Source: Thermoflexales bacterium
Lineage (GTDB): Bacteria; Chloroflexota; Anaerolineae; J036; Brachytrichaceae
Reading direction: 5' to 3'
Assembly (NCBI GenBank): GCA_019694215.1
Contig: JAIBCK010000017.1
Span: 1 to 45,611 of the forward strand
Length of the DNA: 45,611 nucleotides
Below, in pieces: positions 19,278 to 30,617 of this stretch. Made by a program: the position numbers and the translations under genes. Under the pieces are notes generated by a model that saw only the letters and a list, made by a program, of their open reading frames with translations, had not been told where the DNA came from and made no database searches. Each line of letters begins with the position of its first letter. The stretch's first letter is position 1.

Positions 19278-20384
19278 CTAGTGGGCGTGCCCTTCCGCAT
19301 GCTCGTCATCGCCGCCGTGGACGGCCACGGACAGCGAGGTGAAGACGATGATCAGCATCATGAACACGAACGATTGAATGACGGCGACCGCGAACTCGAG
19401 CGCGAGGAAGGCGGTCGGTGCAACGAGCGGGACCAGGAAGGACATCACCAGCACCAGCACGGTGCCGGCGAACATGTTGCCGAACAACCGGAAGGCGAAG
19501 GAGATGATGCGGATGAACTCCGACAGCAACTCAAGGAAGCCGACCGCGAATTGGATCACCGCGATCAGGCCCGCCATCATGCCCTTCTTGACCTTCTTCA
19601 GTTCGCTGAAGCGGAAGAAGTTGCCGAGATAGTGCGTCCCGTTTGCGCGGAAGCCCTGGATTTCGATGAAGATGAAGGCGACCAGCGCCATCGCCAGCGT
19701 CGTGCTCAGGTCGGAGGTCGGGCGGCGCATATACGGCACCACCACGGCACCCGCGCCATGCTCCTCGGCACCGACGACATCGCTGGCCAGGCCCGCGACC
19801 ATTTCGGCCGGCCCGCTCGCCAGCGCGCCCGTGCTCTTGCACGCCTCGGCGGTTGTCGCCGGGATGCCCGTGATCACGGAGGCGGAGCCCGCCTTGACGT
19901 AGCAATAGCCCGTGCCGCTGTGCGGCGCCTCGAGGATGCCGATCGACTCGATGCCGGGGATGACTTCCATCATGCCGGAGACGAGGATGAAGGTGAAGGC
20001 GGTGATGGCAACCGCAACCACGGTCTTGGCGCGCGCCCCGAGGGTCGGCACCATGTAGTTGCGATACAGGTAATCGACGAAGGACTCCCAGGCGTTGGCG
20101 AACCAGTTGCCCGGCGCGCCGCCCTTGCCCTGCAGGTCCATGCCCTTGCGCGCCGCCCAGGCCATCAGCAGGATGACGATGTCAACGATGATGGTCGTGA
20201 ACAGGGTGTTCGGGATGGGATAGCCCGGCACGGTCTCAGGCTTGATCGAAATGGGCGGGATGAAGGACTTGAAGGTCGTCCCGTTGACCACGACGCCATT
20301 CCCGAAGCGCCCCAGTTGGACGCTGAAATAGCATGAGACACACAGGAAGGCCAGCAACAGCACGGTTATGGGTTTGACTTTCAT
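19278..20384 (-). CDS. atpB: ATP synthase a subunit with long insert and His-rich C-terminus
   Basis: The stator half-channel of F0, 368 residues, about 100 longer than typical. The essential arginine is R299 in FAFRLFGNMFAG; the last helix has VIQSFVFMMLIIVFTSLSV (Q337). Extra length comes from an N-terminal segment and a polar insert at about 144-215 between early helices, with two cysteines (C161, C182) and a Gly/Ala-rich stretch. The C-terminus ends HGGDDEHAEGHAH. Otherwise normal. Followed by atpE after 37 bases. Confidence 0.95.
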   Translation of the reverse strand: MKVKPITVLLLAFLCVSCYFSVQLGRFGNGVVVNGTTFKSFIPPISIKPETVPGYPIPNTLFTTIIVDIVILLMAWAARKGMDLQGKGGAPGNWFANAWESFVDYLYRNYMVPTLGARAKTVVAVAITAFTFILVSGMMEVIPGIESIGILEAPHSGTGYCYVKAGSASVITGIPATTAEACKSTGALASGPAEMVAGLASDVVGAEEHGAGAVVVPYMRRPTSDLSTTLAMALVAFIFIEIQGFRANGTHYLGNFFRFSELKKVKKGMMAGLIAVIQFAVGFLELLSEFIRIISFAFRLFGNMFAGTVLVLVMSFLVPLVAPTAFLALEFAVAVIQSFVFMMLIIVFTSLSVAVHGGDDEHAEGHAH

Positions 20385-20443
20385 GGACTACTCGTCTTTC
20401 AGTTTCAGCAAGCCGGTGCGGCCGCTTGTCTAGAGCGCCGCCC

Positions 20444-20752
20444 TCAGGCCGACTCGCCGTTGTTTTTCTTCGCTTCAGCCCAGTCTTCGTAGGCCTTCCG
20501 CGCCCGTGGCACCGTGCCCATCGCCAACTTGTAGGTCACCCAGACAGAGGCGATCGCGCCGATGATGCTCAACAGAAGCGTGAACAGGGGCTTCGTGTTC
20601 GTGACGCGGGTGTCAATGAACAGCCCCAGCAGGACCGAACCGAACACCAGCGCAACAACCGCGAAGCCGATCCGAAGGACCATCTGAGCGATCACCCCCG
20701 CGGGCAACGCCCGTGACAAAATCACGAGCGGGGGATCCTTTTCCTTCTTCAT
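20444..20752 (-). CDS. atpI: AtpI-like F0 accessory protein
   Basis: A 102-residue protein with two hydrophobic segments (about 18-45 and 56-77) and the AtpI/AtpQ-type pattern ending GTVPRARKAYEDW. AtpI assists c-ring assembly or Mg2+ supply in other bacteria. The assignment rests mainly on position directly before atpB and on topology. The upstream gap to nuoN is 66 bases and holds a TAAAAT element that could be a weak internal -10. Confidence 0.8.
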   Translation of the reverse strand: MKKEKDPPLVILSRALPAGVIAQMVLRIGFAVVALVFGSVLLGLFIDTRVTNTKPLFTLLLSIIGAIASVWVTYKLAMGTVPRARKAYEDWAEAKKNNGESA

Positions 20753-20818: not shown

Positions 20819-22372
20819 CTACAGCATCAGTGAGAGCGCTGCCGCGCGGGCCAGCTCCCACAACGGATAGATGGCCAGCAGCGTCGCGATCACACCGAAC
20901 GCGCACAGGCCGACCGCCCAGGCCACCGGCGCGGACACCTTGAGCGGCTGCGCGTCGTTGGCCGCGCGCTGGGTGTACATCGCCAGAACCACGCGCAGGT
21001 AGTAGAACACCGAGACCAGCACCATCGCCACGGCCAGCACGACCAGCCAGATGAAGACGGGGTTGTTGAACTGGGCGGCCACACTCAGCGCCGAGCGGAA
21101 GAGCAGGAACTTGCCCGCGAAGCCAACCAGGGGCGGCGCACCGAGCAGGCTCAACATGACGGCCACCATGGCCAGCGCCAGATACGGCGAGCGCCGCGAC
21201 AGCCCGGCGAAGTCCTTGAAGTCATCGCCGCCCACCCGCTGCGCGACGATGCCCGTCACGGCGAAGGCGCCGATGTTGGTCAGCGTGTAGGTGATCAGGT
21301 AGAAGATCACGGCCGCCAGCGCGTTGGTCGTCTCGGCGGTGTTCTGGCCAAACGAGGCCGCGAAACCCGCGACGCCGATCAGCATGTAGCCGGCCTGCGC
21401 GATGCTGGAGTAGGCCAGCATGCGTTTGACATTGCTCTGGTTGATCGCCATCAGGTTGCCAACCAGCATGGTCAGAATGGCGAGCGGCACCATCATCGCG
21501 ATCCACACCCCGGAGCCCTCGACGTAGTGGCTGGGCACGGGCGAGAAGACATACGGCAGGAAGCGCAGCATGATCGCAAACCCGGCCGCCTTGGACGCGG
21601 TGCTGATGAAGCCCGCCACCGGCGTGGGCGCGCCCTGATAGACATCCGGCGCCCACCACTGGAACGGCACAGTTGACGTCTTGAAGAGAAAGCCGACCGC
21701 CACGAGCAGGAGCGAGAATGTCAGCAGCAGCTTGGAATCCGACAGCGCCAGACGGTCCGCGACGACCTGATATTGCGTCGCGCCACTCAGGCCAAAGACA
21801 TAGCTCAGGCCGAAGAGCATGATCGTCGAGGTGACCGCGCCGAAGACGAAGTACTTGATGCCCGCTTCGGCGCTCAGCTTCGTGTCGCGCATGAAACCGG
21901 CCAGCAGATACAGCGAGATCGAGGCCGTCTCGGTGGCCAGGTAGAGCAGCATCAGATCGTTGGACGCCGCCATCAGGCCCATCCCGACGGTCGCCAGAAG
22001 CAGCAGCGCGTAGTATTCACCGCCCGCGCGCGCCGCGCGGAAGTCGATCGACACCAGCGCGGTCAGCGCCGCGCCGACGATGAAGATGCCCCGGAAAGCG
22101 AAGGCATACAGATCGAAGCGCACCAGGCCGCCCAGCACCACCAGTTTGGTCGGGTCCGTCGCCGCGTAGCTGGCGGCGGTGAGCGCGGCCGGCACGCAGG
22201 CCACCAGCGCGCCCATCAGCCCAAGCGCGGTCAGGATGCCCAACGCACGTCGGCTCACACCGCGGGCCGAGAGCAGGTCGAAGGCCAGGATGGCCAGCGC
22301 CCAGATCACAAGCACGATCTCTGGCAGGACAGCCAGCAGTTCGTTGAGTTTGGTGGGATCAAAGAAAGTCAT
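20819..22372 (-). CDS. nuoN: NADH-quinone oxidoreductase subunit N
   Basis: Proton-pumping antiporter-like subunit nearest the quinone end, 517 residues, about 14 membrane helices. Key charges are present: the glutamate in LYLATETASISLYLL, the helix-7 lysine in FLFKTSTVPFQWWAPDVYQG and the helix-8 lysine in ISTASKAAGF. NVKRMLAYSSIAQAGYM is typical. Its ATG shares one base with the TAA stop of the first nuoM (TAATG), indicating coupling. Last nuo gene of the block. Confidence 0.95.
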   Translation of the reverse strand: MTFFDPTKLNELLAVLPEIVLVIWALAILAFDLLSARGVSRRALGILTALGLMGALVACVPAALTAASYAATDPTKLVVLGGLVRFDLYAFAFRGIFIVGAALTALVSIDFRAARAGGEYYALLLLATVGMGLMAASNDLMLLYLATETASISLYLLAGFMRDTKLSAEAGIKYFVFGAVTSTIMLFGLSYVFGLSGATQYQVVADRLALSDSKLLLTFSLLLVAVGFLFKTSTVPFQWWAPDVYQGAPTPVAGFISTASKAAGFAIMLRFLPYVFSPVPSHYVEGSGVWIAMMVPLAILTMLVGNLMAINQSNVKRMLAYSSIAQAGYMLIGVAGFAASFGQNTAETTNALAAVIFYLITYTLTNIGAFAVTGIVAQRVGGDDFKDFAGLSRRSPYLALAMVAVMLSLLGAPPLVGFAGKFLLFRSALSVAAQFNNPVFIWLVVLAVAMVLVSVFYYLRVVLAMYTQRAANDAQPLKVSAPVAWAVGLCAFGVIATLLAIYPLWELARAAALSLML

Positions 22373-23892
22373 TACGCCATCACTCCGAGCGTTTTCAGAA
22401 TTGCCTGAACGCCGACCGAGACCACCGCCATCACGGTGTTGGGCATCAGCCCGGCGATGAACAGCACGAGGCACATGAACACGATTGAGAACTTCTCGAG
22501 CGCGTTCAGCCCGGGCAGCTTCTGCCATGCGGGGGTCTGTGGCTCGGAGAAGAACACCTTCATCCCGGTGCGCAGCGTCCAGGCTGCGGTGATGATGACG
22601 GTCAGCACACCGATGATGGCGACCGCGCTGTACCACCAGCTGAGCGTGTTGGCCATGTAGGGATAGACCGATTGCGAGCGCTGCCACAGGCCCATGAAGA
22701 TCTGGATCTCCGCGACAAAGCCGGGCAGGCCGGGCATTCCCATCGCCGCGAGCGAGCCGATCACAAAGCCGACCGCGGCCAGCGGCATGACGCGCGCCAG
22801 GCCATCCAGTTTGTCGGTGTTGCGCTCGTGCGCGCGCTCGTAGATCATCCCGACCAGGGCGAACATCAGACCGGTCATCACGCCGCCCGCGAAGAGCTCA
22901 TAGCCGGCGCCATTCAGGCCATAGGCGTTCATCGCGCACAGGCCGAGCAACACCAGGCCCAGGTGCGCGACCGAGGCGAAACCGATGATGTATTTGAGGT
23001 CCTTCTGGCGGAAGGCCACCGAGCCGGCGTAGATGACATTGGCCAGGCAAAGGAAGACCACCAGCGGCAGCCAGTACTGCGCGCCCTGCGGCATGAGCTG
23101 AATGCCAAAACGCAGCGCCGCATAGGCGCCGGTCGCCTTGAGCACGCCACCGTGCAGCATCGACACCGCGGTCGGCGCCGAGGCGTAGCCATCGGGCGAC
23201 CAGTTGTGCAGCGGCCAGATCGAGGCCAGCACCCCAAAGCCGATGAAGACCGGCAGGAACCACAGCTGCTGGAAGCCGAATCCGAGGCTGCCAACGTTCT
23301 TCAGCAACACCTCGAAGTCGAAGGACTTTCCACCGGCGAAGTAGAGCGCCAGCAGGCCGACGATCGCGACGAGCGAACCGAGGAAGAGATAGATGGTCAG
23401 CTTCATGGCCGCATATTCCTTGCGGCCGCTGCCCCAGCTCGCCACGAGGACGTAGACGGGGAAGAGCACCATCTCGTAGAAGATCAGGAAGAGGAAGATG
23501 TCCAGCGACATGAAGGCGCCGAACACGCCGCCGACCAGCATGAGCAGGAAGGCGAAGAATTCGCGCGGCCGGTCATCCTTGCCCCAGCTCACGAGGACGG
23601 CGCAGAACATCACGATGCCGGTCAGCAACAGCTGCGGCGCGGAGAAGCCGTCGACGCCGACCTTGTAGCTCACCCCGAGGGCGGGGATCCACGGCATTTG
23701 CTCGACGAACTGGAAGCCGCCGGTCGCCGTGTTGTAGCCGGCAAAGACGAAGAAGGACAGGATCAGCGACACGCCCGAGAAGGCGGCCGCGACCACTTTG
23801 ATGACCTCGCCCCGATCACGCGGGATGAGCAGGATGACGCCCGCGCCGATGAACGGCGAGAGCATGATCAGGGTCAGGATTGGAAACGCCAT
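22372..23892 (-). CDS. nuoM: Divergent second NuoM-like subunit
   Basis: A 506-residue antiporter-like subunit, NuoM family by IYLFLGSLVAIVG, DLKYIIGFASVAHLGLVLLG and MIYERAHERNTDKLDGL. It keeps the helix-5 glutamate (E140 in FYEMVLFPVY). The central helix-7 lysine is replaced: its neighbour copy has ALKIPIWPLHTWLPDAH, this one VLASIWPLHNWSPDGY, so K becomes L222. The helix-8 lysine is shifted by one position (K252), and the histidine of the usual THG motif is Gly (G336 in FAGGVMTGLMF). It may therefore pump differently or not at all. A Shine-Dalgarno AAGGGG precedes the ATG. It lies between canonical nuoM and nuoN. Confidence 0.9.
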   Translation of the reverse strand: MAFPILTLIMLSPFIGAGVILLIPRDRGEVIKVVAAAFSGVSLILSFFVFAGYNTATGGFQFVEQMPWIPALGVSYKVGVDGFSAPQLLLTGIVMFCAVLVSWGKDDRPREFFAFLLMLVGGVFGAFMSLDIFLFLIFYEMVLFPVYVLVASWGSGRKEYAAMKLTIYLFLGSLVAIVGLLALYFAGGKSFDFEVLLKNVGSLGFGFQQLWFLPVFIGFGVLASIWPLHNWSPDGYASAPTAVSMLHGGVLKATGAYAALRFGIQLMPQGAQYWLPLVVFLCLANVIYAGSVAFRQKDLKYIIGFASVAHLGLVLLGLCAMNAYGLNGAGYELFAGGVMTGLMFALVGMIYERAHERNTDKLDGLARVMPLAAVGFVIGSLAAMGMPGLPGFVAEIQIFMGLWQRSQSVYPYMANTLSWWYSAVAIIGVLTVIITAAWTLRTGMKVFFSEPQTPAWQKLPGLNALEKFSIVFMCLVLFIAGLMPNTVMAVVSVGVQAILKTLGVMA

Positions 23893-23907
23893 TTTCGCAA
23901 GCCCCTT

Positions 23908-25524
23908 TTAGCGGATCAGCGCCGAGATGCTGAAGTTGATCGGGTTCAGGATCAGCGAAGGCAGAATGCCGAGCAGCAACATCGCGATCATCAATGGCGC
24001 CACGCCCAGCACCTCCACCCAGTTGATGTCCTTGAGCGGATGGTGGGCCCATTCATGTCCAACCGGGCCATGCAACACCTTCTGAATGGACTTCAGGATG
24101 TAGATGCCGGTGATGAGCAGCCCGACCATCGAGAGCACCGTCAGCAGCGTGAACTCGCTGCCCCAGGCACCCCGCGTCACCAGGAACTCGCTGACGAAGC
24201 CGGCCAGGCCGGGCAGGCCCAGCGAGCCCATCGCGCAGAAGATCAGGATGGCGCCGTATTTCGGCATGATCGTCCACAGCCCGCCGAGTTTGGTGAGGTC
24301 GCGGGTGTGGGCGCGCTCATACACGATGCCGACGACGGCGAACATCGCCGCAGAGGACAAACCGTGGGTGATCATCTGCAGCACGGCGCCGTTCCCGGCA
24401 ATGCGGGCGCTCTCGATCAGTGCCTCGCCGGTGTAGCCAGCGGCCGCGGCGTGCGCGCCTTCGGCCACCGCATGCGGATCCGGCGCGTGCGCGGCAACCG
24501 CGCCGCCCATCGCCGAGGCCGCGACCGCGATGCCCATCGCGACGAAGCCCATGTGGTTGACCGAGCTGTAGGCGACCAGCTTCTTGAAGTCGTTCTGCCC
24601 CCAGGCCGCAAAGGCGCCCAGCACGATGCTCAGCATCGCCAACACCCCGAGGACGGGCGCGAACTCGCGCGCGGCCTGCGGGAAGAGTGGCAGGACCATG
24701 CGCAGGAAGCCATACCCACCGAGCTTGAGCAGGATGCCGGCCAGCATCATCGAACCGCCGGTGGGCGCCTCGGTGTGCGCATCGGGCAGCCAGGTGTGCA
24801 GCGGCCAGATCGGGATCTTGAGCGCAAAGGCGACCGAGAACGAGACAAACGCAATCACCGGCCAGACCTGCTGCGCGCCCTGGAAGATGTTGACCTGGTT
24901 CTTGCCGACGAAGGGCCGCCCAATTTCGCTGGTCAGATACGGAAGATCAAAGCTCCCCGAGGCGAGACCGACGACCTGGATGGCCAGCAGCATGCCCAGG
25001 CTGGCGAACATCGTGTAGAGGATGAACTTGAGCGACGCATAACGGCGATTCGCGCCACCCCACTGGCTGATGAGGAAGAACATCGGGACCAGGCTCGCCT
25101 CGTAGAAGACGAAGAAGAGCAGCAGGTCAAGCGAGACAAAGGCACCGATGACTGCGGTCTCGAGCAGGAAGAACAGGGCGTAGTAGGCCTTGACGTCCTT
25201 CTCGACGCTCATCGAGATCAGCATCGCCAGCGGTGTCAGGAAGGTGGTCAGGATCACCAGCGGGATCGAGAGCCCATCCACGCCGAGGTGATACGTCGCG
25301 TTGACCTGGGGGAACCAGGCCATCTTCTCCTCGAACAGATACGTGCCCTGTGGCGGGAACTGATATGCCGAGAAGAGCAGGTTGAGCGACAGCGCGAAGG
25401 GGATCAGGCTGAAGGCGACGGACACCCAGCGGATCAGGCCCTTGCGCTCACCCGGCAGGACGAGGACGAGGGCCATGCCGATGAGCGGCAGGAAGGTGAT
25501 GGTGGAAAGCAGGTTGATCGACAT
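23908..25524 (-). CDS. nuoM: NADH-quinone oxidoreductase subunit M, canonical copy
   Basis: A 538-residue proton-pumping subunit with all expected charges: E142 in FYEASLVPMFF, K236 in ALKIPIWPLHTWLPDAH, K267 in AGILLKLGGYG and H387 in QMITHGLSSAAMF. An Ala/His-rich insert of about 35 residues (338-372, including AAHAPDPHAVAEGAH) separates two helices and is not usual. Starts six bases after nuoL ends. This is the copy expected to do the normal pumping. Confidence 0.95.
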   Translation of the reverse strand: MSINLLSTITFLPLIGMALVLVLPGERKGLIRWVSVAFSLIPFALSLNLLFSAYQFPPQGTYLFEEKMAWFPQVNATYHLGVDGLSIPLVILTTFLTPLAMLISMSVEKDVKAYYALFFLLETAVIGAFVSLDLLLFFVFYEASLVPMFFLISQWGGANRRYASLKFILYTMFASLGMLLAIQVVGLASGSFDLPYLTSEIGRPFVGKNQVNIFQGAQQVWPVIAFVSFSVAFALKIPIWPLHTWLPDAHTEAPTGGSMMLAGILLKLGGYGFLRMVLPLFPQAAREFAPVLGVLAMLSIVLGAFAAWGQNDFKKLVAYSSVNHMGFVAMGIAVAASAMGGAVAAHAPDPHAVAEGAHAAAAGYTGEALIESARIAGNGAVLQMITHGLSSAAMFAVVGIVYERAHTRDLTKLGGLWTIMPKYGAILIFCAMGSLGLPGLAGFVSEFLVTRGAWGSEFTLLTVLSMVGLLITGIYILKSIQKVLHGPVGHEWAHHPLKDINWVEVLGVAPLMIAMLLLGILPSLILNPINFSISALIR

Positions 25525-25530
25525 GATCCC

Positions 25531-27732
25531 TTACCCTCGGAAGACGAACAGATAGAAGATCACCAGCACGGCCGTGAGCGCGATGCCGGTGAGCAGGTAG
25601 TTCTGCACCTGCCCGGTCTGAAGCTCGCGCACCCAGTTGCCCGCGCGCTTGAAGGCCGCGCCGGTCAGGTCGGAGACCCCGGTGACAACATACTTGTCAA
25701 AGAGCTTGAAGCCTTCGGCCACGCCACCAGCAATGGTGTAGCCGATCTCCAGCAGCGCGTCGATGATGCCCTTGTCGACGATGACGCTGTAGAAATCAGC
25801 GATCTTCTGTAGCGGATTGATGAAGACCGAGCGATACAGCTCGTCGAAGTACATCCGGTTGTGCAGGAAGGTGAACACCGAGCCCAGCCCCTCGACGGGA
25901 TCGGTCTCGCCGGCCTCGAGCGGCTTGCGGCCATACACCAGCCAGCCCAACCCCAGGCCGGACAGTGCGATGAGCACCGAGACCAGCACCGGGACGGCGT
26001 TGAAGGCGTGGGCGACCTCCTCCTCGACCAGCATCTGGCCAACGAAGTGGTGCAACCAGCCAGCGGCGGAGCCGGCCAGCTGCCCGAACACCGGGAAGTC
26101 CTTCGGGATGTTGATGAAACCGGCGACCCCGGCGAAGAAGGCCAGGATCACCAGCGGCAGCGTCATCGGCCAGGGGTTCTCGGACGCATGCGCCGCAGCT
26201 TCCGAGCGCGGCTTGCCCAGGAAGGTCATCGCGATCTGGCGCATCGTGTAGAAGGCCGTCAACGTCGCCGACACACACAGGATGACGAACACCCAGCTGT
26301 GCAGGCTGCTGCCTTCGAGCAAGCCGGCGTAGGCGCTGGAGAGAATTTCGTCCTTGCTCCAGAAGCCGGCCGTGATGAAGGGGAAGCCGGCCAGGGCCAG
26401 GCCACCCAGCACAAACGTCAGTGTGGTGATCGGCATGCGTTGGGCGAGGCCGCCCATGTTGCGCATGTCCTGCGGGTCGAAGGCGTGTTCGTCGTGGCCG
26501 TGGCTGTCGCCATGGTCGTCATGGCTGCCGTGATCGTCATGGCCGCTGCCATGCCCGGCTGCATGCAGGTGATGGTGGCCGTGCTCGACGCCATGAATGA
26601 CGGAGCCGGAGCCCAGGAAGAGCAGCGCCTTGAAGAAGGCGTGCGTGAGCAGGTGGAAGGCCGCCGCGACATAGGCGCCGATGCCGACCGCAGCCACCAT
26701 GAAGCCGAGCTGCGAAATGGTCGAATAGGCGAGCACACGCTTGATGTCGTATTGCGCGACTGCGATCAACGCGCCCATCAGCGCCGTGATCGCGCCGATC
26801 GCGCCGACGATCTCCAGCCCGACATGACTGCCGAGATGGCCCTTGGTCGCCTCCTCAAAGAGCGGGAAGAAACGCAGCAGCAGGAAGATGCCCGCCGACA
26901 CCATCGTCGCGGCGTGGATCATGGCCGAGACCGGGGTCGGGCCCTCCATCGCATCGGGCAACCACACGTGCAGCGGGAACTGCGCGCTCTTGCCGACCGT
27001 GCCGCCGAAGATCAAGACCGCGATCAGCGTCGCCGCGCTGACGCCCATCCCACCGAGCAGGATGGCTGGCTGTTCGGCCAGGAATTCCAGCACGCCGCGG
27101 TTGACGAGAATGTCGGCGAAGTTGAGCGTCCCGGCCTCGGCGTAGAGATACGCGATGCCAAGCAGCAGCAGCATGTCGCCAACGCGCGTCGTCATGAAGG
27201 CCTTGACAGAAGCCTTGTAGGCCGAAGGTTTGGCGTAGAAGAAGCCGATCAGCGAGTAGGAGCAGAAGCCCATCAGCTCCCAGAACACGAAGAGCATGAG
27301 CAGGTTGTCGGAGACGACCAGCCCGAGCATCGAGCCCGCGAAGAGGCTCAGGTAGCCCATGAAGCGCGTGTAGCGCGGGTCCGCGGCCATGTAGCTGGTG
27401 CTGTAGAGAAAGATCAGCACGCAGGCCAGCGGAACCATGAAGAGGAAGGTGGCACTCAGCGCGTCGACGGCCGCGCCCATGCGCAGGGTCGTGCCGCCCA
27501 CGGGCAGCCATTCGACGTAGCTGCCGACCGGCTTGCGGCCGAGCTCGGGCAGGTTGACCACGCCGGCGACCACCGTCCACGCCGCGATGAGCGAGAGCAC
27601 GACGCCTGCCATCGCGATGCCGGTGGTCAGCGCGCGCGAGCGATTGGCGCCCAGCGCGATGATGGCGAAGGCCAGAATCGGCGGCAGCGGAATCAGCCAG
27701 AGAAGGGTTTGGATGAGTTGGATTGAGATCAT
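25531..27732 (-). CDS. nuoL: NADH-quinone oxidoreductase subunit L with histidine-rich loop
   Basis: The distal proton-pumping subunit, 733 residues, with the long lateral helix and final membrane helix (VLVIFYLFVF) at the C-terminus. Seen: E152 in FVFWELMGFCSYSLIGFF, K248 in GTVGKSAQFPLHVWLPDA, the histidine in SAMIHAATMVSAG and the loop QDMRNMGGL. Between SGSVIHG and QDMRNMG lies an insert (380-417) with 14 histidines and 8 acidic residues, which could bind metal ions. No Shine-Dalgarno is obvious; a stem-loop lies just upstream. Confidence 0.95.
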   Translation of the reverse strand: MISIQLIQTLLWLIPLPPILAFAIIALGANRSRALTTGIAMAGVVLSLIAAWTVVAGVVNLPELGRKPVGSYVEWLPVGGTTLRMGAAVDALSATFLFMVPLACVLIFLYSTSYMAADPRYTRFMGYLSLFAGSMLGLVVSDNLLMLFVFWELMGFCSYSLIGFFYAKPSAYKASVKAFMTTRVGDMLLLLGIAYLYAEAGTLNFADILVNRGVLEFLAEQPAILLGGMGVSAATLIAVLIFGGTVGKSAQFPLHVWLPDAMEGPTPVSAMIHAATMVSAGIFLLLRFFPLFEEATKGHLGSHVGLEIVGAIGAITALMGALIAVAQYDIKRVLAYSTISQLGFMVAAVGIGAYVAAAFHLLTHAFFKALLFLGSGSVIHGVEHGHHHLHAAGHGSGHDDHGSHDDHGDSHGHDEHAFDPQDMRNMGGLAQRMPITTLTFVLGGLALAGFPFITAGFWSKDEILSSAYAGLLEGSSLHSWVFVILCVSATLTAFYTMRQIAMTFLGKPRSEAAAHASENPWPMTLPLVILAFFAGVAGFINIPKDFPVFGQLAGSAAGWLHHFVGQMLVEEEVAHAFNAVPVLVSVLIALSGLGLGWLVYGRKPLEAGETDPVEGLGSVFTFLHNRMYFDELYRSVFINPLQKIADFYSVIVDKGIIDALLEIGYTIAGGVAEGFKLFDKYVVTGVSDLTGAAFKRAGNWVRELQTGQVQNYLLTGIALTAVLVIFYLFVFRG

Positions 27733-27777: not shown

Positions 27778-28101
27778 CTACATCTTCATCTGATCGAGCT
27801 TCTCCGGGTCCACGCTGCGCAGGTTGCGGTAGACCGAGATGATGAGGGCGAGACCGACGGCAGCCTCGGCCGCGGCGACGATAAAGACAAAGGCGGCAAA
27901 AGCGAGGCCCGCCGACGAGTTCGGCGCGACATAGCGCCAGAATGCGATCAGGTTCAGGTTCACCGCATTGAGCATGAGCTCGACGCCCATGAGCACCGCG
28001 ATGGCATTCTTGCGCGCGAGCGCGCCATACAGGCCAATCACAAACAGCCCGGCCGCGACGACCAGAAAGGGGGCCAGGGGAAGACCGTTTATCGAGTTCA
28101 T
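27778..28101 (-). CDS. nuoK: NADH-quinone oxidoreductase subunit K
   Basis: A 107-residue three-helix subunit linking the quinone site to the pumping modules. The two conserved glutamates are present: E41 in MGVELMLNAVNLN and E79 in VAAAEAAVGLALI. A Shine-Dalgarno GGAG lies eight bases before the ATG. It follows nuoJ by 21 bases. Confidence 0.96.
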   Translation of the reverse strand: MNSINGLPLAPFLVVAAGLFVIGLYGALARKNAIAVLMGVELMLNAVNLNLIAFWRYVAPNSSAGLAFAAFVFIVAAAEAAVGLALIISVYRNLRSVDPEKLDQMKM

Positions 28102-28122: not shown

Positions 28123-28785
28123 CTAGTGGTGGGCATCGGTCGTTGCAACCGCCTCCGCGGCCGGGGCCGGCGGCACTGCGGCGGCGGCCTCCTCTGCGGC
28201 CATCTCACGCCGCTCCTTGACGATCTCGACCAGCTTGCGCTCGCGCGCCACCCACACCGCGCCGATCATGGCCAGCAGCAGGAGCACGCCTGCGAGCAGG
28301 AAGGCGACCATGTACTGATCCACCAGCGCGCGCCCGAGGCGCTGCAGCGCATCCGGCGAGACCGCCTGCACGGCCATCTTGAACTCCGGCGGTGCGCCAA
28401 AGGCGCGGGCCGGCAGGTTGAGCGGCGCAAAACCGGGGAAGTTGATCTTCCATGGTCCGACCAGGACGACGATGAGGACGAACAGGACGGCCGACGCGGT
28501 GGCGACCGCGCCGGACTGCTCGTTGTTCGGGCGTGCCATCGTCACGCCCCGGGTGAGCATCACGGCGAAGATGATCAGGATCGAAATCGCGCCGATGTAG
28601 ACCAGCACCTGGGCGGCGGCGAAGAAGTTGGCCTCAAGCAAAACGTAGAAACCCGCGACCCCGAAGAAGGCCAGCACGAGCATCAACGCGGCATGGAAGA
28701 CGTTCTTCATCGTGACCACCGCGAGCGCGGCCCCCAGCGTCACGACGGCGAGGATGACAAAGATGACGGTTGAGAAAGTCAGCAT
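28123..28785 (-). CDS. nuoJ: NADH-quinone oxidoreductase subunit J
   Basis: A 220-residue membrane subunit. Helix 3 carries the typical AAQVLVYIGAISILIIFAVML, whose pi-bulge region couples quinone chemistry to pumping. The C-terminal tail (about 185-220) is Ala/Glu/Pro-rich and ends TTDAHH. It starts six bases after nuoH ends; the nuoI gene that usually lies between them is absent. Confidence 0.95.
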   Translation of the reverse strand: MLTFSTVIFVILAVVTLGAALAVVTMKNVFHAALMLVLAFFGVAGFYVLLEANFFAAAQVLVYIGAISILIIFAVMLTRGVTMARPNNEQSGAVATASAVLFVLIVVLVGPWKINFPGFAPLNLPARAFGAPPEFKMAVQAVSPDALQRLGRALVDQYMVAFLLAGVLLLLAMIGAVWVARERKLVEIVKERREMAAEEAAAAVPPAPAAEAVATTDAHH

Positions 28786-28791
28786 GGTCGG

Positions 28792-30069
28792 CTATTTCCC
28801 GGTTTGCGCGGTGGCAAAGGCTTGATTGGCGACGCGATGCTCGGCTGCTTCCTGCGCGATCGCCAGGCGCTCACGGCGCGCGCTGCGGCTTGCCAGGGTC
28901 AGTGCCAGCCCGAGCAGGCCCAGCCCGCTCACCAGCATGATCGCCATGTACACCAGCGGCGACACGACGAAGAGCCCCGGCTGCGCCGGGAACGTCACGA
29001 AGAGCTTGCTCATCACCATCACCACGATGATGTTGATGATGGAGAGCGGGACGAAGAACTTCCAGTTCAGGTTGACGAGTTGGTCGACGCGCACACGCGG
29101 CAGCGTCCCGCGCAGCCACATGAAGATGAAGAAGATCGAGAAGGCCTTGGCCAGGAACCAGACGTAGGGCGGGATGAAGATCGGACCGGCGAAGCCCCCC
29201 AGGAAGAAGGTCGAGAACATGATCGACACGACGGCGGCATTGACATACTCGCCCATCATGAAGAGCGCGAACTTCATCCCGGAGTATTCGACGTGGAAGC
29301 CGGCCACGATTTCGGACTCGGCCTCCATCAGGTCAAACGGGGAGCGCCCGACCTCGGCGATGCCGCTGATCAGGAAGACCAGCGCCGAGACCGGCAGGAA
29401 CAGGATGAAGGGCAGGCCAAAGCCACCCGGCGCATCGGTCTGCTTGGCGATGATGTCGAACAGGCTCATCGAGCCGCTCAGCATGATGACCGGCAGGACG
29501 TTGAGCAGCATCGGCACTTCGTAGCCGACCAGCTGCGCAACGGTGCGGAACGCGCCCAGCAGCGAGTACTTGTTGTTGCTCCCCCATCCGGCCATGAGGA
29601 TGGCGATGGTGCTGCCGGAGCCGATCGCAATATAGAAGAACGCGCCAATGTCCAGGTTGACGCCTGCGACGCGCGGGGCGAAGGGGATGACAGCCAGCGA
29701 GGTCATGGCAAACGCGGCGATCATGATCGGCGCGATGAGATACACCCAGCGGTCGGCGTTGGCCGGCGTGATGTCCTCCTTGGTCAGCATCTTGACGCCG
29801 TCGGCCAGCGGCAGCATCAGCCCGAAGGGGCCGGCCTGGTTTGGCCCGATGCGGTCCTGGATGCGCGCAACGATCTTGCGCTCGAACCAGGTCAGCGCCA
29901 TCATCGTGACCGCGCCGAACGTGATCAGACCGATGGCGGCCAGGATCATCAGCACCAACTCGGTTCCCGGGCCTTTGCCGAGCAGACCGGTGATGAACTT
30001 GCCGATCTCGTCAAAGACGAAGGCCATCAGGTTGTTGATGAATTTGAGTACTTCGAGGATGTTGTCCAT
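28792..30069 (-). CDS. nuoH: NADH-quinone oxidoreductase subunit H
   Basis: The subunit that forms much of the quinone chamber, 425 residues. Conserved stretches: WFERKIVARIQDRIGPNQAG, PLADGVKMLTKEDITP, the acidic loop FDLMEAESEIVAGFHVEYSG and RGTLPRVRVDQL. The N-terminal 45 residues and a charged C-terminal tail make it longer than E. coli NuoH (about 325). It is preceded by a terminator-like hairpin that separates it from nuoA, so it may need its own promoter or read-through; none was clearly seen. Confidence 0.96.
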   Translation of the reverse strand: MDNILEVLKFINNLMAFVFDEIGKFITGLLGKGPGTELVLMILAAIGLITFGAVTMMALTWFERKIVARIQDRIGPNQAGPFGLMLPLADGVKMLTKEDITPANADRWVYLIAPIMIAAFAMTSLAVIPFAPRVAGVNLDIGAFFYIAIGSGSTIAILMAGWGSNNKYSLLGAFRTVAQLVGYEVPMLLNVLPVIMLSGSMSLFDIIAKQTDAPGGFGLPFILFLPVSALVFLISGIAEVGRSPFDLMEAESEIVAGFHVEYSGMKFALFMMGEYVNAAVVSIMFSTFFLGGFAGPIFIPPYVWFLAKAFSIFFIFMWLRGTLPRVRVDQLVNLNWKFFVPLSIINIIVVMVMSKLFVTFPAQPGLFVVSPLVYMAIMLVSGLGLLGLALTLASRSARRERLAIAQEAAEHRVANQAFATAQTGK

Positions 30070-30185: not shown

Positions 30186-30542
30186 TCAGTCCCACTCCAG
30201 CACGCCCTTTCGCCACGCATACAGCAGCGACGAGAGCAATGTCAGCGCAAACAGGCTGATGACCAGCACCGTCCACGCCGGAAGTTGGTTGAAGGCCAGG
30301 GCGATCGGGAAGAGCAGCACACCGCCCACATCGAACAGAACGAACACCAGGGCAAAGAGGTAGTACTGAACGCGGAACTGGACCCAGGCATCCCCCACGG
30401 TCTCCATGCCGCACTCATACGTTGCTGCTTTGTCCTTGTTGGGCTTTTTGGGGCGCAGGAGGGAGGCCGCTACAAGGGCCGCGCCCATGAGCAGAAATGC
30501 CGCCACCAACAAGACGCCCACGAACGCAAAATCGGTTCTCAT
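30186..30542 (-). CDS. nuoA: NADH-quinone oxidoreductase subunit A
   Basis: A 118-residue three-helix membrane subunit. The conserved TYECGMETVG (C44) and RVQYYLFALVFVLFDV are present. In the second helix family members have FDxE; here it is FDVGG, so the glutamate is replaced by G73 while D71 is kept. The start at MRTDFAFVG is chosen because TATAAT ends only nine bases upstream; the open frame continues further but would include the promoter. First nuo gene; nuoB, C, D and I do not follow. Confidence 0.94.
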   Translation of the reverse strand: MRTDFAFVGVLLVAAFLLMGAALVAASLLRPKKPNKDKAATYECGMETVGDAWVQFRVQYYLFALVFVLFDVGGVLLFPIALAFNQLPAWTVLVISLFALTLLSSLLYAWRKGVLEWD

Positions 30543-30551
30543 GGCGCGCGG

Positions 30552-30557
30552 ATTATA
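30552..30557 (-). promoter_or_regulatory. Consensus -10 of nuoA, implying a leaderless mRNA
   Basis: Perfect TATAAT on the minus strand, nine bases before the nuoA ATG and with no Shine-Dalgarno between. A weak -35 (TATTCA) sits 17 bases further upstream. The usual 6-7 bases from -10 to transcription start would leave almost no leader. Confidence 0.6.
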
Positions 30558-30617
30558 CCGCGATGAAGGCTTGCTGAATAATGCCGAAATCGGCGTCAGA
30601 ATCACCCCGCCGCGGCA

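What the first reader, a model, noticed from the sequence alone, without database searches (positions are those of the whole stretch)
22372..25524. Two NuoM copies, one without the central proton-path residues
The gene order L-M-M-N gives an extra antiporter subunit. The copy next to nuoN keeps the helix-5 Glu (E140) but has Leu at the helix-7 Lys (L222, aligned with K236 of the canonical copy). The helix-8 Lys is shifted one residue, and Gly replaces the conserved His (G336, aligned with H387). In known complex I these residues carry the proton. Complexes with two NuoM (2M type) are known and are thought to pump more; here the extra copy looks uncoupled or differently coupled, perhaps a spacer or an ion-specific variant.
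Basis: partly seen in the sequence, partly recalled or inferred. Interest (0 to 1): 0.66.

Follow-up and report, generated by a model that had tools for sequence, protein, structure and literature searches.

The report
Complex I subunit lacking key lysine
This Chloroflexota bacterium's respiratory complex I has two copies of the pump subunit NuoM, and one of them belongs to an old, well-preserved branch that lost a lysine thought essential for proton pumping but gained other charge-carrying residues nearby, making it a natural test of how the enzyme works.

Summary
The operon reads nuoA-H-J-K-L-M1-M2-N in a Chloroflexota genome (Anaerolineae/Thermofontia, Roseilinea relatives). M1 has every canonical NuoM residue. 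M2 has Leu222 at the helix-7 Lys site, Lys252 shifted one residue, and Gly336 at the helix-11 His site; it keeps Glu140, His310 and Glu395. The 2M architecture was already known in Chloroflexi, and NuoL here carries the expected ~25-aa lateral-helix extension. What is new (to my literature search; the founding 2M paper was not readable) is residue-level. TM7 Lys→Leu is fixed in M2 (54/55; one Thr). It is also fixed in 12 NuoMs that are the only NuoM of an operon. Together they form one clade (100/100), distinct from M1, so M2 is not a fresh duplicate of M1. The other two changes are later: the Lys shift occurs in 16/55 and His→Gly in only 11. Losses come with gains: NuoL-like TM8 His247 (61/67), and Glu332 one turn from Gly336 (11/11 versus 0/141 elsewhere). 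Selection is as strong on M2 as on M1. I conclude that M2 is probably a working proton subunit whose Glu–Lys gate was rebuilt, not a dead spacer. Pumping and stoichiometry are untested.

The parts
22372..23892 (-). nuoM2 (506 aa): NuoM without the TM7 Lys (L222); E140, H247, K252, H310, E332, G336, E395
   Evidence: AF2 model
23908..25524 (-). nuoM1 (538 aa): NuoM with all canonical residues (K236 TM7, K267 TM8, H387 TM11)
   Evidence: AF2 model
25531..27732 (-). nuoL (733 aa) with C-terminal lateral helix about 25 aa longer than in one-NuoM operons
20819..22372 (-). nuoN (517 aa), ATG overlaps the nuoM2 stop codon (TAATG); all canonical residues kept
27778..28101 (-). nuoK
   Evidence: sequence; used as tblastn query that finds nuoK in related operons
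28123..28785 (-). nuoJ (Oxidored_q3)
28792..30069 (-). nuoH (NADHdh)
30186..30605 (-). nuoA (Oxidored_q4)

Best explanation
M2 is the resident Chloroflexota NuoM of a 2M-type complex I, from a lineage that lost the TM7 lysine (K to L) once, before or near the origin of the 2M complex. M1 is a canonical NuoM of a separate lineage in the same operon, and NuoL's lateral helix is lengthened to clamp four antiporter-like subunits. Shown: gene order, residues, single origin of the K-less clade, purifying selection, NuoL extension, and existence of K-less NuoM as the only NuoM of operons. Inferred: M2 still passes protons. In this view the TM5 Glu-TM7 Lys gate is replaced by TM5 Glu with a NuoL/MrpA-like TM8 His (H247), and the path TM8 Lys (K252), H310, E395 remains. 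In the window's family E332 on TM11 takes over from the lost His (G336). Whether the complex pumps 5, 4 or another number of H+ per 2e- is not known.
For: TM7 Leu in 54/55 M2 and 12/12 single K-less NuoM; TM5 acid 67/67, TM8 Lys 67/67 (at one of two adjacent positions), H322 67/67, E407 67/67. TM8 His in 61/67 K-less proteins against Leu in all single K-bearing NuoM and 94% of M1. Q344/H348 to E/G in 11/11 of the window's family and none of 141 others. In the same operons NuoN and NuoL keep all central Lys/Glu residues and M1 does in 54/54. Tree: M1, M2, single K-less and (M2+single K-less) each one clade at bootstrap 100; AU test rejects M1+M2 as one clade, p 2e-58. Operons with a sole K-less NuoM and the other complex I genes: L179-L182. 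dN/dS of M2 0.02-0.13, like M1. AF2 model pLDDT 88, full antiporter fold, TM-score 0.91 to Paracoccus NuoM. NuoL tail median 103 in 2M operons against 78 in one-M operons.
Against: No functional data. The TM7 Lys is essential in E. coli and Paracoccus NuoM/ND4 (PMC3046159, PMC9802314), so its loss could well abolish pumping by this subunit. The TM8 His is missing in 6 of 67 K-less proteins, so it is not strictly required. Conserved residues could serve charge relay without transmembrane pumping. 11 of the 12 genomes with a sole K-less NuoM operon carry a further NuoM elsewhere, so the K-less complex may be specialised.
Confidence: 0.55

Rival explanations
1. M2 no longer moves a proton across the membrane. 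It only passes the electrostatic signal (or acts as a spacer) between NuoN and M1. The added M1 restores the lost pump, so the 2M complex pumps four protons, not five.
For: TM7 Lys is essential in E. coli and Paracoccus. M1 with intact residues accompanies the K-less M2 in every complete 2M operon examined. The tree fits K loss first, M1 gain later.
Against: TM8 Lys, TM10 His and TM12 Glu, the main proton path in recent models, are kept in all M2. New His and Glu residues replace those lost. The K-less NuoM also exists without M1 in otherwise full operons.
Confidence: 0.25
2. M2 is adapted to another ion (for example Na+), with the NuoL/MrpA-like TM8 His setting specificity.
For: The TM8 His motif is otherwise confined to NuoL and MrpA, which one group regards as Na+ channels (PMC4938563).
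Against: No Na+-site residues were identified; only the His, not the whole helix-VIII motif, is shared; Na+ transport by NuoL is itself disputed (own knowledge). Not tested.
Confidence: 0.1
3. M2 is a degenerating duplicate or an assembly artefact of this metagenome genome.
For: It departs from the canonical residues in a subunit family where they are near-universal.
Against: Orthologues are intact in nearly all family genomes and in many other families of the phylum, in independent assemblies. dN/dS is 0.02-0.13. It is not a sister of M1.
Confidence: 0.02

Closest known systems
2M-type complex I of Chloroflexi (Chloroflexus aggregans, Anaerolinea thermophila; Chadwick et al. 2018, cited in PMC7117926 and PMC8004040)
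   Same: nuoL-M1-M2-N order, nuoBCDI off the operon, NuoL lateral-helix insertion; the window is a member.
   Different: The papers I could read do not describe the lost TM7 Lys, the TM8 His, or the His to Glu exchange. The original 2018 paper was not held and could not be read.
Canonical NuoM/ND4/Nqo13 (E. coli, Paracoccus, Thermus)
   Same: Full fold, TM5 Glu, TM8 Lys (shifted here), TM10 His, TM12 Glu; NuoM profile far above cut-off.
   Different: TM7 Lys replaced by Leu; TM8 His added; in this family TM11 His replaced by Gly with a new Glu one turn away.
NuoL / MrpA antiporter-like subunits
   Same: His on TM8; in most K-less proteins His and Lys are six residues apart (own knowledge: MrpA has the same spacing).
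   Different: By profile and tree M2 is NuoM, not NuoL (no NuoL profile is among its listed matches); it lacks the TM7 Lys that NuoL and MrpA keep.
Nitrospira 2M and Ca. Manganitrophaceae complex I_3 (PMC9040806)
   Same: Extra antiporter-like subunit with a 26-aa helix insertion.
   Different: Other phylum; their NuoM residues could not be checked here.

Membership tests
NuoM (ND4) subunit of complex I | Score above curated NuoM profile cut-off | tested here: met
   TIGR01972 419.5 bits vs 263.8
NuoM (ND4) subunit of complex I | Antiporter-like multi-helix fold with broken TM7 | tested here: met
   AF2 pLDDT 88.2, TM-score 0.91 to 8qby_M; helix 205-220 then loop with L222
NuoM (ND4) subunit of complex I | TM5 Glu and TM12 Glu | tested here: met
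   E140, E395
NuoM (ND4) subunit of complex I | TM7 Lys (K234), partner of the TM5 Glu | tested here: not met
   Leu222; Leu in 66/67 of the K-less clade, Thr in 1. By descent and profile it is still NuoM: a variant lacking this residue
NuoM (ND4) subunit of complex I | TM8 Lys (K265) | tested here: inconclusive
   Lys present but one residue earlier (K252); canonical register in 51 of 67 K-less proteins
2M-type complex I | Two nuoM genes between nuoL and nuoN | tested here: met
2M-type complex I | ~26-aa insertion in NuoL lateral amphipathic helix | tested here: met
   Tail after the conserved Asp: window about 104 aa, 2M median 103, one-M median 78
2M-type complex I | nuoBCDI away from the operon (Chloroflexi type) | tested here: met
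   No B, C, D or I next to the window operon; a second nuoB lies near the end of contig C94, so C, D, I could not be seen
2M-type complex I | Fifth proton per 2e- | not testable with these tools
   Needs biochemistry; proposed, not measured, in the literature read
NuoL / MrpA | NuoL or MrpA profile as best match plus TM7 Lys | tested here: not met
   Best match NuoM; no TM7 Lys

The most novel reading that the evidence does not exclude
Chloroflexota carry a NuoM lineage in which the supposedly universal TM5 Glu-TM7 Lys switch of antiporter-like subunits is absent and a TM8 His (with further local exchanges) does the gating. Complex I with such a NuoM, even as the only NuoM, still couples and pumps, so the Glu-Lys pair is not a necessary part of the mechanism.
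Probability: 0.4. Interest if true: 0.8.

Novelty: new variant of a known kind. Interest (0 to 1): 0.6.

Why it matters
[quoted passage not shown] mutating it kills the enzyme. A natural, ancient, strictly conserved subunit that lacks this Lys, beside three subunits that keep it, lets those models be tested. It also bears on the claim that 2M complexes pump a fifth proton: if the K-less M2 does not pump, the second NuoM may restore the usual number rather than raise it.

Tried and rejected
A nucleotide search of M1 against E. coli gave only chance hits. The founding 2M paper (Chadwick et al. 2018) is not held, so whether it already notes these residues is unknown. A tandem duplication of M1 was rejected by the AU test. 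Loss of function by decay was rejected by dN/dS and invariance. A signature search for K-less NuoM in 200 Pseudomonadota genomes found none, but the pattern finds only about half of the known K-less genes. Other phyla, Nitrospira included, could not be reached. The AF2 models gave secondary structure only; TM8 is one unbroken helix in M2 (241-265) but broken at 266, next to the Lys, in M1. That hints at a changed TM8 bulge that could explain the one-residue Lys shift, but it is too weak to rely on.

Full report
Place and context. The window is contig C28 of a 3.4-Mb Chloroflexota genome; the nearest named relatives are Ca. Roseilinea and Thermoflexales MAGs. On the minus strand the order is nuoA, nuoH, nuoJ, nuoK, nuoL, nuoM1, nuoM2, nuoN, then atpI-like and atpB. 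nuoM2 and nuoN are coupled by a TAATG overlap. The genome has a second complex I on contig C142 with one K-bearing NuoM and a second nuoB on C94. The LMMN order with nuoBCDI elsewhere is the known Chloroflexi 2M arrangement (PMC7117926, PMC8004040).

The observation. Alignment with E. coli NuoM, by phmmer against PDB chains and by MAFFT, confirms each stated residue. M2 has E140 (TM5), L222 at the TM7 Lys, K252 one residue before the TM8 Lys column, and G336 at the TM11 His. M1 is canonical at all six sites.

Survey. I surveyed 301 Chloroflexota genomes plus relatives and fetched about 80 loci. M1: all six sites kept in 54/54. M2: TM7 Leu in 54/55 and Thr in one; TM5 Glu, H322 and E407 in 55/55; Lys one residue early in 16/55; His to Gly in 11/55. 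Twelve further NuoMs, each the only NuoM of its L-M-N cluster, also have TM7 Leu. Four of their operons were read over a longer stretch and hold A, B, C/D, H, I, K, L, M, N, three of them also J by these queries (L179-L182). Their NuoL tails are short (median 78 against 103 in 2M operons), as expected for three antiporter-like subunits. Eleven of the 12 genomes with such operons carry a further NuoM elsewhere; those fetched lie in ordinary L-M-N clusters. In all these operons NuoN and NuoL keep their TM5 Glu, TM7 Lys and TM12 Lys. The departure is confined to one subunit position.

History. A maximum-likelihood tree of 63 proteins gives M1, M2 and the single K-less NuoMs as clades (100/99, 100/99, 100/98). 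M2 plus single K-less is one clade (100/100), sister to K-bearing single NuoMs of other Chloroflexota. M1 lies on the side of proteobacterial NuoM. Holding M1 and M2 together is rejected (AU p 2e-58). So M2 is not a recent copy of M1, and the Lys was most simply lost once. Either K was lost before M1 joined, or single-NuoM lineages lost M1 later; the short NuoL tails fit the first better, but this is inference.

What was gained. Among 67 K-less proteins the TM8 residue at E. coli L259 is His in 61, against Leu in all single K-bearing NuoMs and 94% of M1. A TM8 His is otherwise a NuoL/MrpA mark (PMC4938563; PMC7419157). In the window's family the pair Q344/H348 became E332/G336 in 11/11 sequences, and Glu-Gly occurs in none of 141 others (56 other K-less, 54 M1, 31 single K-bearing). 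The two residues are one helical turn apart. Thus protonatable groups were moved rather than simply lost.

Selection and fold. M2 dN/dS between close relatives is 0.02-0.13, like M1. H322 and E407 are among the 46 invariant columns of 482. The AF2 model is confident (pLDDT 88, pTM 0.91) and matches solved NuoM chains at TM-score about 0.9.

Mechanism. In Paracoccus ND4 the Glu-Lys pair and terminal Glu are essential; the TM8 Lys mutant keeps 18%; the two His mutants keep most activity and the full four protons (PMC9802314). In simulations and liposome work the main path is TM8 Lys, His, TM12 Glu, with the Glu-Lys pair as an electrostatic gate beside it (PMC11496545). On this reading His to Gly and the Lys shift are mild changes, and only the TM7 loss is severe. 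Since the path residues remain and substitutes appear, I favour a rebuilt gate in a working subunit (about 0.55). The main rival is a non-pumping relay whose lost function M1 makes good (about 0.25). Sequence alone cannot decide.

Limits. Most genomes are metagenome assemblies. Cross-phylum checks were confined to Pseudomonadota with a pattern of about half sensitivity. I could not read Chadwick et al. 2018, so novelty is stated against the papers I could search.

Noticed in passing
L140, L146, L149 (family f31, small genomes of 1.5-2.1 Mb): NuoL has a lateral-helix tail of 106 aa, as long as in 2M complexes, although the operon holds only one nuoM. Similar cases are reported for Ca. Manganitrophaceae (PMC9040806).
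   Followed up: partly
L156 (G000:C142) and L157 (G000:C57): The second complex I of this genome runs A-B-CD-E-F-G-H-I-J-K-L-M with no nuoN found beside nuoM; a nuoN-like gene lies on another contig.
   Followed up: no
window 19278-20752: An atpI-like gene and a long F0 subunit a gene (atpB, 368 aa) follow nuoN directly on the same strand.
   Followed up: no
L130, L132, L133 (family f71): K-less single NuoMs in which the TM5 Glu is Asp and the TM8 His is Ala: a further departure in the same proton axis.
   Followed up: partly
L105, L106 (family f20): M2 lacks the TM8 His but has a new Glu on TM8 just before the Lys (MLLAGVEMKVG).
   Followed up: no
G009:C28:26447-28042: The M2 homologue appears as two separate matches (60% and 73% identity), possibly a frameshift or insertion.
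   Followed up: no
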